Below are positions 24,877 through 30,636 of a DNA stretch of 34,974 nucleotides, one piece after another. The DNA is from a virus. The position numbers were made by a program, and so were the translations under genes. Positions within the stretch are counted from its first letter, which is position 1. Each line of letters starts with the position of its first letter. The stretch covers positions 1 to 34,974 of the IMG/VR virus record IMGVR_UViG_3300012147_000045; one strand, 5' to 3'. A model generated the notes under the pieces. That model was given only the letters and a program-made list of their open reading frames with translations, did not search any database and had not been told where the DNA came from.

Positions 24877-25056
24877 TTAATTAATATTGTTTGTTGGTTG
24901 ATTTATTTCATCGGTTAATTCTAATATCAAATCCGTGTTGATGAATAGTTCGGTTACATTTTTACCCTCCCAATGAATTATTAGTGGTACTATGAGTCCA
25001 TCGGAAAATTTCTCGGTTTGGATATCCAACTCTAGTTTTTTGAATAAGTGTATCAT
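24877..25056 (-). CDS. Hypothetical small protein
   Basis: A 59-residue ORF (MIHLFKKLELDIQTEKFSDG then VPLIIHWEGKNVTELFINTD). The start follows a Bacteroidetes-type promoter at 25077 by about 20 nt, so it is probably the first gene of the 23.0-25.1 kb operon. Function unknown. Confidence 0.62.
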   Translation of the reverse strand: MIHLFKKLELDIQTEKFSDGLIVPLIIHWEGKNVTELFINTDLILELTDEINQPTNNIN

Positions 25057-25076
25057 ATCGTTTATTTATTAGACCA

Positions 25077-25109
25077 CTAATATACGAAATTAATTTTACA
25101 TTACCAAAT
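25077..25109 (-). promoter_or_regulatory. Bacteroidetes-type promoter
   Basis: TTTGG, 19 nt, then TATATTAG (25077-25084), directly after a strong terminator. It starts the operon that contains the YqeY, ATP-grasp and ClpS-like genes. Confidence 0.72.
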
Positions 25110-25111
25110 AA

Positions 25112-25145
25112 AAAAAGGATAAAGTTTTTCAACAATATCCTTTTT
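25112..25145 (-). terminator. Intrinsic terminator
   Basis: A 10-bp stem (AAAAAGGATA paired with TATCCTTTTT) with a 14-nt loop, T-rich on the 3' side on both strands. On the minus strand it ends transcripts from the small gene at 25301. Confidence 0.75.
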
Positions 25146-25300
25146 GGATTAATTTGCAAGGGTCAACCGATACCACCCTTACATGGAAGATTTGTTCATC
25201 TTGTCGGAAATAAACTGGAGATTTGTTTTTATTTATGTGAGATATTCACAACTCACTGCAAGTTCTTCTTTCCCCGTCTCGATTCGGTATTAAGGTATTT

Positions 25301-25474
25301 TTATACTTTAGTTTTCAATATTGAAATTTCTTTTTCAATACGCCTTTTATCTGTATCTGTTAGTGGAACTTTCTTATCAAATGATTTCTTTTCTGTTTTT
25401 GAACCTTGTTTTAATTGAGATTCTAATGTGGATAAAGATCTACTCTGTCTTGATTTTTTATTTTGTGTAGCCAT
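25301..25474 (-). CDS. Hypothetical small basic protein
   Basis: A 57-residue ORF: MATQNKKSRQSRSLSTLESQ then FDKKVPLTDTDKRRIEKEIS. It is very basic and helical at its C-terminus. It follows the large structured RNA region, so it could share that transcript. Downstream about 155 nt to the terminator hold small hairpins but no gene. Confidence 0.6.
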   Translation of the reverse strand: MATQNKKSRQSRSLSTLESQLKQGSKTEKKSFDKKVPLTDTDKRRIEKEISILKTKV

Positions 25475-25640
25475 AAGTTATTTTTAATTTTTTACATATC
25501 GATTACTCTATAATTAACTTAAATACATTACACCACAAGGTTATCATCCTTGAATATGTGGTTTTTTCTACCCAATTCCACGTTCTACTAGTAGATTGAA
25601 AAGTTTGTGCACCTAGGATTGGATGGTGTAATAATATAGA

Positions 25641-25710
25641 GCGGGAAGCTGGAAATGAGCCAACTTCTTCATACTGGTCGTATGACACTTTAACAATAAG
25701 CTATTCCCGC
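25641..25710 (-). other. tRNA-like cloverleaf with non-canonical loops
   Basis: Seventy nt fold as a full cloverleaf on the minus strand: acceptor GCGGGAA/TTCCCGC, D stem GCTT/AAGT, anticodon stem TCATA/TATGA, T stem GTTGG/CCAGC. The loops are wrong for a working tRNA: the D loop lacks GG, the anticodon loop CGACCAG lacks U33, and the T loop is CTCATTT. Either a decayed tRNA or a tRNA-like RNA domain. Confidence 0.55.
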
Positions 25711-26105
25711 GTACTATGGTTGATTTATATGGTTCAACCATAAAGACCAAAATTATTTATACACTCAAACATACTTACTCTTGTGTATATATTCAGTTTT
25801 ATTAAAGTCGTAATGTCATTCACTCTAATATTGAATACCCATGTTCTGGAAATAATTCTTTAAATTAAATTATAGGTAATCCCCACATTATCGATTACCC
25901 AACCCAATGACCTATGCAGTTGTGATTCTGTTTTAAAGGATTTTCCTCGGTTTTGGATTTATAACTTAATCGTTTTTTATCTTTACGTTTCAAAGATAGT
26001 AAGCAGGTTTGGTTAGTCGTCTTTCCTACTAGATGATGTTTCATTTTTTATCAAAGGGTCTGTTATTCATCATTCACTTAACTGACCATGTTAAGTAACA
26101 TCTGA

Positions 26106-26252
26106 TCAAGAGGTTAGATTCGAACCAACACACAAAGGTTGAATTTACGGACTATTTTTATTTAATATAAATCACCTACCTTATACCTGGTTACCGAACT
26201 TTGAATTAAATTAATTCGTTAGCAAGCTGTACTACCGTTGTACTACTCTTGA
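26106..26252 (-). other. Interrupted or enlarged tRNA-like gene
   Basis: The 5' part has exact tRNA geometry: acceptor TCAAGAG, TA, D arm GTAC-AACGGTA-GTAC, then GCTTG. The 3' part has T arm GTTGG-TTCGAAT-CTAAC directly next to CTCTTGA, the perfect complement of the 5' acceptor. But the two are 147 nt apart end to end, about 70 more than a normal tRNA, and no 3' anticodon strand is clear. Confidence 0.5.
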
Positions 26253-26607
26253 ATTTAAAATAAAATGCTGAGATTATACATTTAATGTTCCCACTTTCGT
26301 TTCCGTACTCTTTGGGTGCAAACCCATCGATTAAAAACTTATCCACCTCAATCTTTCGAGGTATGAAAACAACACCGCCTTTTTTAAAGAGTGGCTTTTC
26401 TCTTATCACTTTGAAACTACTCGACTTTCATCCTACCCTTGATCTTGCGAACCATTCATTCCTGCTAAGGAATTAGGTGTGGAATTCAATCAATTCACAT
26501 CTACCTTGCGAGTGTCCGTGAACCTACATTACCGTAAACGATTGTAGGATTAGGTGATTTGTTTTTCCAAAGTTGTTAGGGTCTTTGCTGTTATCATTAT
26601 TAATGAC

Positions 26608-26679
26608 GGAATGTGCAGGAGTTGAACCTACGACTTTTTGTTTAACATACAAATGCTCTACCAACTGAGCTAACTTTCC
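26608..26679 (-). tRNA. tRNA-Asn (GTT)
   Basis: Canonical D arm (AGCTCAGTTGGTAGAGC), anticodon stem TTTGT/ACAAA with loop ATGTTAA, T arm GTAGG-TTCAACT-CCTGC. The acceptor has one A-A mismatch. It sits inside an 8-bp flanking helix (26705-26712 with 26574-26581), so it may be part of a larger RNA before processing. Confidence 0.93.
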
Positions 26680-27455
26680 TAAGTTATTTATTCACCTCCT
26701 CGTGCCCTAACACCGTTTCATACTATTTTGTAGTACAAAATGCGGGACGAAAAATACGTTTCGGTCTACCAAACCTACTGTGCGATACTTCAAGATTACT
26801 TTGGATTCATTATGATTCCTTTTACCTTTTGTATTGATTACTTGCTCTAATACTGGTGGTACTTGAACTCATAATCTATATCTTATCTACTTTTGGTTTT
26901 GTTAGTTTAGTATGTAATAACAAAAGGAACTACCCTTATTTAGAAAAACCCACCGTTGGCCAGTCTTTACTATATCCCGTTCCACGGGGAGTTATTACCT
27001 AACTTTCTCCATATCTACCACGTTGACGGTGATAACCTGTTTGGCACAGCTAAGATGATACTTGTTTAAATAAACCAATGAAACTTGGCGGAGGGATGTG
27101 AACCCCTCCTTTCGATACTTTACAGTACCATATCTTTGTTATAAAACCGTAGTCCTATAGTAGGATGTCAAACCACCCTTATAAAATTAATCAGTTGGTA
27201 TCCTCTGATAACAACCTATATACTTCAATCCGAATTCCAATTCCGTACCTAGTAGTTATATACTTTAATCCAAGACCAAGCTCGAATCGTTTCTATAAAA
27301 CATATATAAATTATTTTGTTAATTTATTTTTTCAATCTGTAATTTCAATGAACATCGTTTGTTATATTGGGTATATATATATATATACAAATTTCCCAAA
27401 CGTAATATTTTTTTAAAAAAAATACCAAATTATTTATTAGTATTTTTCTACTCTG

Positions 27456-27503
27456 TAAAGATACGATAATTAAATCGTATTTCCTAATTTAATATGTTAA
27501 AGT
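27456..27503 (-). promoter_or_regulatory. Promoter with AACATATTAAA motif, upstream of the structured RNA
   Basis: ACTTTAACATATTAAATTAGG, 19 nt, then TATCTTTA (27456-27463). No protein gene follows for about 2 kb, so the product is probably RNA. About 270 nt of AT-rich leader lie before the first clear helices. Confidence 0.75.
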
Positions 27504-27517
27504 TTTGTTAAAACTCT

Positions 27518-27605
27518 TGGAGTTCTAGGTTGGATTTGAACCAACGGGGAAGTTTCCTTCAATAGTTTTGCAGACTATCCTAATCGACCACTCTAGCACT
27601 AGAAC
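27518..27605 (-). tRNA. tRNA-Cys (GCA) with a class II variable arm
   Basis: Acceptor GTTCTAG/CTAGAAC, discriminator T and an encoded CCA (27518-27520). Anticodon stem ATAGT/ACTAT with loop CTGCAAA gives GCA. The variable region is 16 nt with a GAAG-GAAA-CTTC hairpin, and the D arm is of the long-arm (Ser/Leu) kind. U73 agrees with Cys, but Cys tRNAs normally have a short variable loop. Confidence 0.88.
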
Positions 27606-27977
27606 ATAAAATAAAAACGATTGGATAATACAAGGGTTATCGGTTGGATAACTACCCCGTGTAAGTTGATTCAAACTTAATATCCTTTCTCAATACTTTC
27701 TAACAGAATTGTTTTTATTATTTGATAAATTATTTAGAATATTTTAATGATATTGATACCTTGTATTTATTATTAATAAATCCTAGATATAAGTATATAA
27801 ATTATATGATTAACAAATATAATAATAGTTTAAAATACAACCTTGATTTTTTACCTAGTGTTTTCTCACTTTTGAATAAACTTAAACTAAAGGTTGTAAT
27901 TTAATTTTTGAATAATTTTTCAAAATCGGATTTGACATCAACATACATAATTTTTATCTTTAATAATTACTACGTAG
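27606..27977. other. Stretch without a credible gene
   Basis: About 370 nt of very AT-rich sequence between a promoter and tRNA-Cys. It holds a 9-bp stem-loop (TACAACCTT with AAGGTTGTA, about 27837-27899) and a GTTATC-CAACC-GATAAC hairpin near 27640. A 60-codon plus-strand ORF here is probably chance. A 15-codon minus-strand ORF follows the promoter. Confidence 0.5.
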
Positions 27978-28026
27978 TAAATATACGATAATTAATTTAT
28001 TTTTCCTAACTTCAAATCTTAAAGTT
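27978..28026 (-). promoter_or_regulatory. Bacteroidetes-type promoter
   Basis: AACTTTAAGATTTGAAGTTAG -35-side region, 19 nt, then TATATTTA (27978-27985). It is a variant of the AACATATTAAA family and leads into the tRNA-Cys region. Confidence 0.62.
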
Positions 28027-28034
28027 TTGTTAAA

Positions 28035-28349
28035 TTATTTTTTCTTACCACCTCTTGCACGTTTATCTCCAGGTGAATCCGATTTACTTCCTCTATTCTT
28101 ACTAGATTCTTTGAACCGTATTCCGTTCTTCGTATGGGATGCATCCTTTCCTTTTATATCTTTTCCTGCCTTTTTTGCATCCCGTCTTGCCTTATTAGTT
28201 TCAACCCTAGATTTTACCTGTTCCGGTCGTTTATTTAATTCAGCATCATACTTTTGTTTTGCCTTACGTTTATCCGGGTTATCCCTATAATATTTAGCCG
28301 AACTAGATAGTTCGGCTAATATCTCTTTAATCATATTCATTAATTTCAT
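28035..28349 (-). CDS. Conserved small basic phage protein
   Basis: A 104-residue, lysine/arginine-rich protein starting MKLMNMIKEILAELS. The core AKYYRDNPDKRKAKQKYDAE, then NKRPEQVKSRVETNKARRDA and KDIKGKDASHTKNGIRFK, SSKNRGSKSDSPGDKRARGG is a well-conserved pattern in many aquatic T4-like phages (A-x-K-x-Y-x-x-NP, KDASHTKNG, S-NRGS-x-x-D-x-PGD-x-RARG). It is probably nucleic-acid-associated; the function is not established to my knowledge. A longer start at 28418 would cover the upstream gene. Confidence 0.8.
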   Translation of the reverse strand: MKLMNMIKEILAELSSSAKYYRDNPDKRKAKQKYDAELNKRPEQVKSRVETNKARRDAKKAGKDIKGKDASHTKNGIRFKESSKNRGSKSDSPGDKRARGGKKK

Positions 28350-28374
28350 AATACATCGTTTTATATAAGTATCA

Positions 28375-28956
28375 TTACAGGAAAAGATACGGCTTCCATT
28401 CTGATGGAATATGTCCAATTGTTTTAAGTAACATTAGGAAGTGAGGCCGCTTCGGGTTTGGATGGTCCAATCCCAATTCCTCGATTAACAAATCTGCCTT
28501 TGTATGGTTACACGGTTTACACGCGGTTACCAAGTTGTTCCAACTATTCTTACCGCCCTTTGATTGTGGGTGTACGTGATCCAACGTCAAATCGGATTTG
28601 TGATGTACAACTCCAGGAGGACAGTACACACATTCGTAATTATCCCTACGGAATACATTCTCCCTTGATAACGGCACTTTTTGAAAATTCTTTTTTACAT
28701 AAGTGAATACACGGATAATAGATGGTTTACCAATTTCTAGTTCAGGATTAACCAATCCAAAACTTTCAGGATGTTCTTCTATAACTTCTGCATTTCCCTT
28801 ATAAGAAATAACGAAAGCACGTTCGGTTGTAATAATTGATCGTGGTATCCAAGCTGAATCGATAACAAGGCATCGTTTGTATAGATGTGAATTATCTACG
28901 TTTGGATTAACAATTACCCGTTTTCCCCGTACTGATTTTTTCTGTTGTGTTTCCAT
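28375..28956 (-). CDS. HNH endonuclease
   Basis: A 193-residue protein. The C-terminal half carries an HNH nuclease with a zinc site: ECVYC (first Cys pair), LTLDHVHPQSKGGKNSWNNL (catalytic DH-x-x-P and NN), and CKPCNHTK (second Cys pair). The N-terminal half (residues 1-95, LVIDSAWIPRSIITTERAFV) is the domain often found before HNH in phage and cyanobacterial proteins. It could be a free-standing homing endonuclease or a DNA packaging nuclease. Placement beside the tRNA array fits a mobile type. Confidence 0.88.
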   Translation of the reverse strand: METQQKKSVRGKRVIVNPNVDNSHLYKRCLVIDSAWIPRSIITTERAFVISYKGNAEVIEEHPESFGLVNPELEIGKPSIIRVFTYVKKNFQKVPLSRENVFRRDNYECVYCPPGVVHHKSDLTLDHVHPQSKGGKNSWNNLVTACKPCNHTKADLLIEELGLDHPNPKRPHFLMLLKTIGHIPSEWKPYLFL

Positions 28957-29111
28957 GACCTATACATTCTATATTTGAATGATAATATACCTTTTCTATA
29001 GTAAATTCCTTCATCCCAATAAATTGGATATAATTCACTCATTAATAATCGTTTGTACTCTTTACTATTGTGGGATTTATTAAATCTTCCACGATTAAAA
29101 TTTATACTCAT
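28914..29111 (-). CDS. Hypothetical basic aromatic protein
   Basis: A 65-residue protein (SINFNRGRFNKSHNSKEYKR then YPIYWDEGIYYRKGILSFKY). Basic and tyrosine-rich. It overlaps the HNH gene by 43 nt, so its 3' end is less sure. Function unknown. Confidence 0.5.
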   Translation of the reverse strand: MSINFNRGRFNKSHNSKEYKRLLMSELYPIYWDEGIYYRKGILSFKYRMYRSWKHNRKNQYGENG

Positions 29112-29177
29112 TTTGCATTTTGGTTTAATTAAACCTAATGCAAATCAAATTGGATTTTCATAATTAATAATTTTTGT

Positions 29178-29248
29178 ACCCGTAGAGGGAGTCGAACCCC
29201 CAACACTGCTTTAGAAGAGCGGTATTTTTCCAATTAAACTATACAGGC
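29178..29248 (-). tRNA. tRNA-Arg (TCT)
   Basis: Acceptor GCCTGTA/TACGGGT with two G-U pairs, D stem GTTT/AAAT, anticodon loop CTTCTAA, T arm GGGGG-TTCGACT-CCCTC. One mismatch in the anticodon stem. Reads AGA codons, frequent in this AT-rich genome. Confidence 0.88.
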
Positions 29249-29591
29249 AAAGTGGGATTTATTTTATGACAGCCTGATGGCGGCTCCTACTAAATAGGTA
29301 CGTTGTTTCATCCCAAACGCGATAATTTTAATGTTATAAAGATAGTAAATTAAGAAAACCACCTACTGGGAAATTAAGGATTCTCCAGTTCTTCCTATTT
29401 TAATTTACGCAGTATGTCTACTCCGTGATTTCCAAACAACCCTTGCGGTTGTTCTATGTAAACTATTTCTCCTACGTTCAGCGTATCTTGTCCGAGTTCC
29501 CATTTGTGTATTCATCATATCTTATCGATTTAATGTATTACTATTCAGTTTGGCTATCGAGTCTACCACCTATTTTATAGCCATTATCTAC
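29249..29591 (-). other. Non-coding stretch with helices
   Basis: About 340 nt. Minus-strand helices include AACAACC-GCAAG-GGTTGTT, and a TGGGAT/ATCCCA stem enclosing CCTA-TTTAG-TAGG and AGCC-GCCATCA-GGCT hairpins near 29265-29315. Short reading frames are interrupted by stops. Possibly a structured RNA; nothing recognised. Confidence 0.4.
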
Positions 29592-29804
29592 TTACATTTC
29601 CCTTGAATATACAACGGTTTCCTTGTAATCTTTATCATCTATTGTAGTGGATTTATATCCCCTGTATTTTAATGATTCTATTTCATCATCCGAAATACTG
29701 AAATTGAATACTTTTGCAGCATATCCCAATGATGTAGATTTTTCAACCTCTGTTATTATATTGTTTATTTTGTTTTTCATGATATAATTTATTTTATTCT
29801 CCAA
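29592..29804 (-). CDS. Hypothetical protein
   Basis: A 70-residue protein (NKINNIITEVEKSTSLGYAA then FSISDDEIESLKYRGYKSTT). The start could be any of three Met codons. A weak TATATTAG promoter box lies about 30 nt upstream. No family recognised. Confidence 0.55.
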   Translation of the reverse strand: MENKINYIMKNKINNIITEVEKSTSLGYAAKVFNFSISDDEIESLKYRGYKSTTIDDKDYKETVVYSREM

Positions 29805-29862
29805 TCATTATTAGGATACTAATATAGTAATAATATTCTTTAGATTCGTAGTATTAAAAAGT

Positions 29863-29933
29863 GACCTCGGAGGGATTCGAACCCCCATCTGTTGAGCCGT
29901 AATCAACTGTTCTATCCGTTGAACTACGAGGCC
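29863..29933 (-). tRNA. tRNA-Arg (ACG)
   Basis: Acceptor GGCCTCG/CGAGGTC, D arm GTTC-AACGGATA-GAAC, anticodon stem GTTGA/TCAAC with loop TTACGGC, T arm GGGGG-TTCGAAT-CCCTC. A34 would need editing to inosine to read CGN codons. Confidence 0.92.
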
Positions 29934-29962
29934 AAAAATTACCCAATTTTCGTATTGGGTAA
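29934..29962 (-). terminator. Hairpin with T run (terminator or processing signal)
   Basis: Nine-bp stem TTACCCAAT/ATTGGGTAA, loop ACGAAA, followed by five Ts that touch the 5' end of tRNA-Arg (ACG). It closes the tmRNA gene. Confidence 0.65.
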
Positions 29963-29973
29963 GTACGTGATTC

Positions 29974-29995
29974 AAAAATTCCTAGAAATTAGGAA
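29974..29995 (-). terminator. Hairpin after the tmRNA tag
   Basis: TTCCTA-ATTTC-TAGGAA followed by five Ts, on the minus strand, just after the tag stop. It may be the 3' end of the coding piece. Confidence 0.5.
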
Positions 29996-30006
29996 TCAAA
30001 CAGTTT

Positions 30007-30030
30007 TTAGGCTGCAATTGCAAAGTTTCC
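30007..30030 (-). other. tmRNA tag reading frame
   Basis: Codons for GNFAIAA then TAA if the resume codon is GGA, as Gly is usual in Bacteroidetes tmRNAs; an upstream GTA would give VKGNFAIAA. The hydrophobic AIAA ending fits a ClpXP-type degradation tag (compare ALAA). The exact resume codon is uncertain. Confidence 0.7.
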
Positions 30031-30217
30031 TTTTACAGTAATATCAATCTCAATTATCACATCTTCTACTGTCAAAACAATCCAACCCCATATTTAAAAT
30101 CTATACTAAGTTACGTTATGTGTACACATAAGAGGTTTTACTTAGTCTATGTGGAGTTGCAGGGTAACGAACCCTGGTCCAGTAAATTGTTAATAATCAT
30201 CAACAATTAATATTTGT

Positions 30218-30298
30218 AGTACGGATAGGATTCGAACCTATAACTCTAGACCGTTTTAATGGGTGACCTACCGTTTTGCCATTATAAGATACCGTACT
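30218..30298 (-). tRNA. tRNA, anticodon uncertain (irregular anticodon arm)
   Basis: Acceptor AGTACGG/CCGTACT and T arm ATAGG-TTCGAAT-CCTAT are perfect, and the D loop has GG. At 81 nt it is 8-10 nt too long for class I. The anticodon arm is best drawn as TAG+ACC paired with GGT+CTA with a GTC bulge and loop CATTAAAAC, suggesting TAA (Leu), but this is unsure. Confidence 0.6.
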
Positions 30299-30309
30299 AT
30301 TAAAATTGC

Positions 30310-30380
30310 ACTCCCCAAGGGATTCGAACCCTCATAAATGGTTTTGGAGACCATCATGTTACCAGTTACATCAAGGAAGT
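30310..30380 (-). tRNA. tRNA-Trp (CCA)
   Basis: Acceptor ACTTCCT/GGGGAGT, D arm ATGT-AACTGGTA-ACAT, anticodon stem ATGGT/ACCAT with loop CTCCAAA, T arm GAGGG-TTCGAAT-CCCTT. All stems form. Confidence 0.92.
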
Positions 30381-30482
30381 ATATTAGTTTTATTTCATTA
30401 TGGTGTTTGAAAAACTAAAAAAACAACGCCCGCTAGGATATTTTATACGTAATTTAGGAATCTCTAGCTCTACCTTATTCGT

Positions 30483-30561
30483 AACCCAAGTGGGACTCGA
30501 ACCCACACGCCTAGGCAACAGCGCTTAAAACTGTCGTGTCTTCCAATTCCACCATTGGGCT
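30483..30561 (-). tRNA. tRNA-Leu (TAA)
   Basis: Acceptor AGCCCAA/TTGGGTT, class II D arm, anticodon stem ACAGT/GCTGT with loop TTTAAGC, variable arm with GCC-TA-GGC, T arm GTGGG-TTCGAGT-CCCAC. Confidence 0.9.
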
Positions 30562-30636
30562 ATGTAGGAGTAGTTTTAGCGAATTTGTACTTCAACGAAA
30601 CCGTTGGCATCCTTTCTTAACCACATTTCTACTCTA

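What the first reader, a model, noticed from the sequence alone, without database searches (positions are those of the whole stretch)
25528..27180. A 1.65 kb structured RNA region with an embedded tRNA-Asn
Long-range perfect helices (8, 7, 7 and 6 bp), many hairpins, a strong dedicated promoter and no plausible protein gene point to a large RNA. An 8-bp helix closes around tRNA-Asn. GOLLD and ROOL RNAs, which form large assemblies, sit next to phage tRNA genes and may contain tRNAs, so this could be a divergent member or a new class.
Basis: partly seen in the sequence, partly recalled or inferred. Interest (0 to 1): 0.85.

Follow-up and report, generated by a model that had tools for sequence, protein, structure and literature searches.

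The report
GOLLD RNA carrying a tRNA-like domain
This phage region encodes a GOLLD RNA, a known large RNA whose relative builds hollow RNA cages, and the tRNA inside it looks, across its relatives, less like a working tRNA than like a built-in tRNA mimic whose reading head changes unusually fast, which gives a way to test what these cages do.

Summary
Rfam finds a full-length GOLLD at 26265-26753, minus strand (162.5 bits, cut-off 150). Seven distinct related phage GOLLDs show the conserved RNA runs 27179->26265 (about 915 nt), with strong covariation in the 5' and 3' domains. 25528-26252 is not part of the RNA; a likely promoter lies on the minus strand (27487-27458).

tRNAs in the GOLLD linker were already reported (PMC12286853). 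New here: across about 90 distinct examples the linker "tRNA" behaves like a tRNA-like domain. D, anticodon and T stems are kept, but the three outer acceptor pairs occur only at chance level (ordinary tRNAs 92-98%). The anticodon differs in 10 of 26 independent near-identical pairs, against 3 of 181 for ordinary tRNAs. In cultivated Caulobacter phages (phiCbK versus CcrSwift and others) the domain and flanks are identical except for five anticodon-loop bases.

The window's own copy is among the most tRNA-like (6 of 7 acceptor pairs), so a decoding tRNA-Asn is not excluded for it. Best guess: a retained tRNA mimic inside the RNA cage, perhaps bait for host anticodon nucleases (inferred, not shown).

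The parts
27458..27487 (-). Promoter-like element TTAGGA-N18-CGTATCTT (resembles the Bacteroidota type TAnnTTTG)
   Evidence: Same pattern upstream of the GOLLD in 4 of 7 distinct members. It lies in a 58-nt stretch repeated at about 27977-28042 and has a counterpart upstream of the GOLLD in L082. Function inferred.
27342..27353 (-). boxA-like element GTTCATTGAAAT in the leader (possible rRNA-type antitermination signal)
   Evidence: Related GTTC(T/A)TTNA elements upstream of the GOLLD in 6 of 7 distinct subfamily members; in a fixed 245-nt leader window 5 of 7, 0.013 expected by shuffling. The window's copy is a weak match. Function inferred.
26782..27179 (-). GOLLD 5' domain
   Evidence: Homologous in related phages. 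92 pairs, 92.6% of cells paired, 50 pairs with two-sided changes, 0/500 shuffles as high.
26758..26781 (-). Conserved motif ACAGTAGGNTTNGNANNCNGAAAC at the 5'/3' domain junction, used to find the subfamily
   Evidence: Exact match in 12 IMG/VR contigs, all with a tRNA 101-105 nt downstream or a degenerate tRNA-like element there.
26265..26753 (-). GOLLD 3' domain (Rfam RF02032, positions 1-416)
   Evidence: 162.5 bits, cut-off 150, E 5e-44. 137 pairs in the alignment of 7, 98% paired, 76 with two-sided changes.
26705..26712 (-). 5' strand of the 8-bp helix that closes around the linker tRNA (UGUUAGGG)
   Evidence: helix 5.
26574..26581 (-). 3' strand of the same helix (CCCUAACA)
   Evidence: helix 5.
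26607..26679 (-). tRNA-Asn(GUU)-like domain in the GOLLD linker; acceptor stem with an A.A mismatch at pair 5
   Evidence: ARAGORN, Rfam tRNA 64.9 bits. Same place, different anticodon loop in each distinct relative.
26105..26252 (-). tRNA with intact acceptor, D and T arms but an insert of about 75 nt in the anticodon region, starting 13 nt after the GOLLD 3' end (flanking element, not part of the GOLLD)
   Evidence: Rfam tRNA 32 bits over 148 nt. In L084 an ordinary tRNA-Leu stands at this place.

Best explanation
The region encodes a GOLLD RNA of a T4-like phage with a large tRNA array. It is transcribed on the minus strand, probably from its own promoter. By homology it should fold into a 5' and a 3' domain and assemble into a 14-mer RNA cage, with the variable linker facing the lumen (inferred from the cryo-EM structure of GOLLD env-38). 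In this lineage the linker carries a tRNA-shaped domain held by a conserved 8-bp helix. Across GOLLDs this domain is best explained as a tRNA mimic that stays covalently in the RNA, not as a tRNA that is cut out and decodes: its elbow and anticodon arm are kept, its acceptor end is usually broken, and its anticodon changes faster than the rest of the domain. The most likely role, inferred only, is bait for a host factor that reads anticodon loops, such as an anticodon nuclease of an anti-phage defence. My probabilities: GOLLD 0.97; non-decoding mimic in the family 0.75; the same for this window's copy 0.6; bait for anticodon nucleases 0.3.
For: Shown: full-length GOLLD match. Covariation through both domains and the helix around the tRNA. 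50 of 50 tested contigs with a linker tRNA arm are GOLLD by Rfam, 48 over the cut-off. Linker domains versus ordinary tRNAs on the same loci: acceptor pairs 1-3 form in 41/51/58% (shuffled 47/42/46%) against 92-98% in controls, while D, anticodon and T stems are 96-100% paired. Perfect 7-bp acceptor in 9% of the ARAGORN-found linker tRNAs against 85% of controls (p 2e-41). Anticodon differs in 10 of 26 independent near-identical pairs against 3 of 181 (p 4e-8); anticodon sites change at 3.2 times the average site, in controls at about 0.08 times. Seven distinct members of the window's subfamily carry seven different anticodon loops at the same place, three with Leu or Ser anticodons but no long variable arm. 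In cultivated CbK-like Caulobacter phages the domain and flanks are identical except five loop bases, giving three alleles CTCTTAA, CGTCCTA and CATCCTA. The nearly identical phage G001 has another tRNA-Asn(GUU) with a perfect acceptor. From PMC12286853: the linker lies inside the cage, and tRNAs are 'sometimes present' in it.
Against: The window's own domain is nearly a complete tRNA-Asn: 6 of 7 acceptor pairs, U33, GUU, 64.9 bits, the second-best tRNA score in the window. Most anticodon loops keep U33 (99%) and A37 (86%), as decoding tRNAs do. 19 of 45 linker anticodons duplicate an ordinary tRNA on the same locus, so most do not on these partial contigs. No expression, processing, cage or nuclease data exist for these phages. 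Near-identical pairs were chosen on the domain itself. The Caulobacter block change may be one or two events. Lack of an encoded CCA does not discriminate.
Confidence: 0.55

Rival explanations
1. The linker tRNA-Asn is an ordinary decoding tRNA, co-transcribed with GOLLD and cut out by RNase P and RNase Z. The two GOLLD domains, which are separate in the cage, tolerate the cut.
For: High tRNA scores and a canonical anticodon loop in the window's copy. It sits at the end of a tRNA array of at least 28 tRNAs. The 5' and 3' domains are separate in the GOLLD structure (PMC12286853).
Against: None of 7 distinct subfamily members has 7/7 acceptor pairs while 83% of control class-I tRNAs do (L218 judged by eye). 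Anticodons switch between amino acids with the same body. Leu and Tyr anticodons occur without long variable arms: 0 of 4 of length 80 or more, against 163 of 215 Leu/Ser/Tyr controls. phiCbK's copy has G33 and U37. A second tRNA-Asn(GUU) exists.
Confidence: 0.2
2. The conserved tRNA scaffold displays a variable loop that base-pairs with a changing outside target RNA (antisense or kissing loop), rather than baiting a protein.
For: In Caulobacter phages exactly the loop changes, as a block of five bases, on an invariant scaffold. Kissing loops are a common device in GOLLD and ROOL assembly (PMC12286853).
Against: No covarying partner for positions 34-36 was found in the 3' domain or the 110 nt 5' of the domain among 87 sequences. 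Most loops keep the tRNA-like N-U-U-A-A pattern (71% NUU), which a free guide would not need.
Confidence: 0.15
3. The linker tolerates any insert, and the tRNA is a captured, decaying gene without function.
For: Linkers vary in sequence and most GOLLDs lack the domain (5 of 87 distinct in a sample taken by the 3' end). Acceptor stems are degenerate.
Against: D, anticodon and T stems stay 96-100% paired with many pair types, above shuffles wherever the columns vary. Near-identical domains sit in GOLLDs with a mean 3'-domain identity of 78% (the pairs were chosen on the domain). Decay would not focus change on the anticodon.
Confidence: 0.1
4. It is a ROOL RNA or a new class of large RNA.
Against: Full-length GOLLD match and no ROOL match.
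Confidence: 0.01

Closest known systems
GOLLD RNA (Rfam RF02032); structure of GOLLD env-38, 14-mer cage (PMC12286853)
   Same: Whole 3' domain model matched. 3' region of about 416 nt and whole RNA of about 830 nt plus insert. Variable linker at the same place. Phage location beside a tRNA island. tRNAs in the linker have been reported.
   Different: 5' domain of a subtype found exactly in only 12 IMG/VR contigs by its junction motif. The linker holds a tRNA or tRNA-like domain in every distinct member of this subtype. Degenerate acceptor ends and fast anticodon change in the wider family are not described in the papers I could read.
ROOL RNA
   Same: Large phage RNA near tRNAs that forms a cage with a disordered inner linker (PMC12286853).
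   Different: No sequence or structure match in the window.
Phage-encoded tRNA-Asn(GUU)
   Same: Cloverleaf, anticodon GUU, U33.
   Different: Embedded in GOLLD inside an 8-bp helix, acceptor mismatch, not conserved as Asn in relatives.
tmRNA and viral tRNA-like structures (general knowledge)
   Same: A tRNA fold used as a fixed part of a larger RNA.
   Different: Here the acceptor end, the part those use for charging, is the part that is lost, while the anticodon arm is kept and varies.

Membership tests
GOLLD (RF02032) | Covariance-model score over the curated cut-off | tested here: met
   162.5 against 150 bits, positions 1-416
GOLLD (RF02032) | Conserved 3' domain supported by covariation | tested here: met
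   76 of 137 pairs with two-sided changes, 98% paired, 0/500 shuffles as high
GOLLD (RF02032) | Separate, less conserved 5' domain upstream | tested here: met
   5' domain aligned and covarying in 7 relatives, 61% mean column identity against 76% for the 3' domain
GOLLD (RF02032) | Variable linker inside the 3' region | tested here: met
   The tRNA aligns to the model's unpaired stretch around positions 80-108
GOLLD (RF02032) | Phage or prophage location near tRNA genes | tested here: met
   Virus record with T4-like baseplate and PhoH genes; 28 tRNAs on one 20-kb stretch of the near-identical contig
GOLLD (RF02032) | Assembly into a 14-mer cage | not testable with these tools
   Needs cryo-EM or mass photometry
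GOLLD (RF02032) | Raised expression during lytic growth | not testable with these tools
   No RNA-seq for this uncultivated phage
Decoding tRNA-Asn (linker domain) | Anticodon GUU with U33 | tested here: met
Decoding tRNA-Asn (linker domain) | Intact 7-bp acceptor stem | tested here: not met
   GGAAAGU/ACAUUCC has A.A at pair 5; 0 of 7 distinct subfamily members reach 7/7 (L218 by eye)
Decoding tRNA-Asn (linker domain) | Anticodon identity conserved among orthologues | tested here: not met
   Seven distinct members, seven different anticodon loops
Decoding tRNA-Asn (linker domain) | Released and aminoacylated | not testable with these tools
   Needs tRNA sequencing or acid northern blots
ROOL | Match to the ROOL model | tested here: not met
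   No match up to E 0.5 over 24900-30600

The most novel reading that the evidence does not exclude
GOLLD cages of many phages carry about 14 copies of a non-decoding tRNA mimic on their inner linkers, whose anticodon loop is under diversifying selection. The cage would be a tRNA decoy or trap in the conflict between phages and host tRNA-directed defences.
Probability: 0.3. Interest if true: 0.85.

Novelty: new member of a known kind. Interest (0 to 1): 0.6.

Why it matters
GOLLD was described from metagenomes and its cage structure was published in 2025, but its function is unknown. A domain kept inside it as a tRNA shape, with a broken acceptor end and a fast-changing anticodon loop, points to what the cage may deal with, namely something that reads tRNA anticodon arms. 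Laboratory Caulobacter phages (phiCbK, CcrSwift and relatives) carry natural alleles that, within the domain, differ only in that loop, so the idea can be tested directly. It also means that 'tRNA-Lys', 'tRNA-Gly' and similar annotations inside GOLLD in public phage records may not be decoding tRNAs.

Tried and rejected
ROOL or a new class: rejected. DNA similarity of the window region to annotated phages finds only tRNA-like pieces. A covarying kissing partner for the anticodon within the 3' domain or the 110 nt upstream of the domain: none found. Comparing whole GOLLDs of near-identical domain pairs to find compensating changes: flanks too divergent to read. Sigma-70-type promoter scan: not above chance. 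rRNA comparison for the boxA-like element: a related element lies downstream of a Chitinophagaceae 16S gene, probably in the spacer, which is suggestive only. Genome-contig pattern hits: mostly chance matches; only seven with a tRNA-like element were kept in the first domain set, and none in the pairwise rate test.

Full report
What is there. Rfam finds a full-length GOLLD RNA at 26265-26753 on the minus strand (162.5 bits, cut-off 150, E 5e-44), with tRNA-Asn in the model's unpaired linker. The window is an IMG/VR virus record with T4-like baseplate, endolysin, helicase and PhoH genes. A 70.5-kb contig 99.9% identical over the region (G001; L083, L220) shows the rest of a tRNA array: 28 ARAGORN tRNAs on one 20-kb stretch, with GOLLD at the end and a second tRNA-Asn(GUU).

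Extent and structure. Two relatives found through PhoH carry GOLLD too. DNA homology runs from about 27183 to 26253 and stops there. A junction motif found 12 contigs in IMG/VR. Aligning 7 distinct members gives a 5' domain from 27179 (92 pairs, 50 with two-sided changes) and a 3' domain (137 pairs, 76 with two-sided changes). Both exceed all 500 shuffles and all slid controls. The structure was predicted on the same alignments, which favours it.

Expression signals (inferred). TTAGGA-N18-CGTATCTT lies at 27487-27458 on the minus strand, with the same pattern upstream of the GOLLD in 4 of 7 distinct members. A boxA-like element lies upstream of the GOLLD in 6 of 7. I saw nothing to suggest that the plus strand is transcribed here.

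The linker tRNA. In the window's subfamily a tRNA starts 101-105 nt after the motif in every distinct member where ARAGORN calls one, with anticodons Asn GUU, Leu CAG, Leu UAG, Lys CUU, Ser UGA and an eight-base loop. L210/L217 have a degenerate version. The Leu and Ser ones lack the long variable arm that bacterial tRNA-Leu and tRNA-Ser have (established knowledge).

Test on a larger set. All 50 tested contigs with linker tRNAs are GOLLD (48 over the cut-off). Against ordinary tRNAs on the same loci (69 linker, 1193 control; 91 and 862): D, anticodon and T stems are kept, acceptor pairs 4-7 are kept, and acceptor pairs 1-3 are at chance. Anticodon sites differ more between near-identical pairs than any other region (19% of sites against 6% overall; controls 0.6% against 7%). 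71% of anticodons are NUU and 82% have U36. No covarying partner was found. In a sample taken by the GOLLD 3' end, 5 of 87 distinct GOLLDs have the domain and 0 of 87 shuffled.

Cultivated phages. GOLLD with a linker domain occurs in Caulobacter phages phiCbK, Ccr10, CcrSwift, Magneto, Karma, RBC57 (Rfam 165-171 bits) and, by 94.5% DNA identity, BL57. It also occurs in Sinorhizobium phage Phosso (187 bits) and Mesorhizobium phage Cp1R7A-A1 (194 bits). Two Erythrobacter phages carry a tRNA-like element followed by the GOLLD flank, but XM05's GOLLD did not reach the Rfam cut-off. In six CbK-like phages 38 of 1214 alignment columns vary; five are in the seven-base anticodon loop and none in the other 65 domain positions (p 5e-7 if sites were independent; the change may be one event). 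With BL57 there are three loop alleles, and two of them (G33 or A33, with U37) should not decode (judgement from general tRNA knowledge).

Function. From the published structure (PMC12286853) the linker lies inside the cage, tRNAs are 'sometimes present' there, and ribosomes bind GOLLD in pull-downs. I infer that the domain is a retained tRNA mimic. A broken acceptor end makes charging and clean release unlikely, while a kept elbow and a changing anticodon loop suggest recognition by something that reads that loop. Host anticodon nucleases are the best-known candidates, but this is a hypothesis. The window's own copy is among the most tRNA-like, so decoding cannot be excluded for it.

Limits. 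I could read only open-access papers; the original GOLLD paper and others may have noted some of this. Pairs in the rate test were chosen on the domain. The downstream 25528-26252 stretch was not explained beyond its tRNA-like pieces.

Noticed in passing
30007-30198 (minus): Permuted (two-piece) tmRNA, Rfam RF04321, 53.7 bits (cut-off 47); ends ...GCAATTGCAGCCTAA. Permuted tmRNA is known in marine phages (PMC9004378); here it sits in a phage with Bacteroidota-like promoters. Also in G044, G046 and G050, and next to GOLLD on the opposite strand in CbK-like Caulobacter phages.
   Followed up: partly
26105-26252 (minus): tRNA with perfect 7-bp acceptor, D and T arms but about 75 extra nt in the anticodon region, 13 nt after the GOLLD 3' end: intron-like insert or pseudogene. 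About 18 of 121 GOLLD loci have a tRNA starting roughly 10-20 nt after the GOLLD end, which could set its 3' end by RNase P.
   Followed up: partly
25637-25710 (minus): Complete cloverleaf (acceptor GCGGGAA/TTCCCGC, canonical spacing) without the TTC T-loop or U33, loop CGACCAG. A similar one with loop CTACCAG follows GOLLD in L210, where L211 has an ordinary tRNA-Gly(UCC).
   Followed up: partly
27455-27512 and 27977-28042: 58-nt direct repeat, 84% identical, holding the promoter-like element, upstream of GOLLD and again upstream of the tRNA-Cys.
   Followed up: no
L357:219-292: Second tRNA-Asn(GUU) of the near-identical phage has a perfect acceptor but an unusual T-loop (ATCGTAA).
   Followed up: no
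L084:1839-1912 (minus): Linker domain with an eight-base anticodon loop (TTTTAAAC); four further linker domains parsed with eight-base loops.
   Followed up: partly
G068:C1:167864-168218: A second, weak GOLLD-like match (40 bits) on a 424-kb phage contig that also has a full GOLLD.
   Followed up: no
L407:1291-1363: Public records annotate the linker domain of Caulobacter phages as tRNA-Gly(TCC) or tRNA-Lys; with G33 and U37 the phiCbK one is unlikely to be a decoding tRNA.
   Followed up: yes
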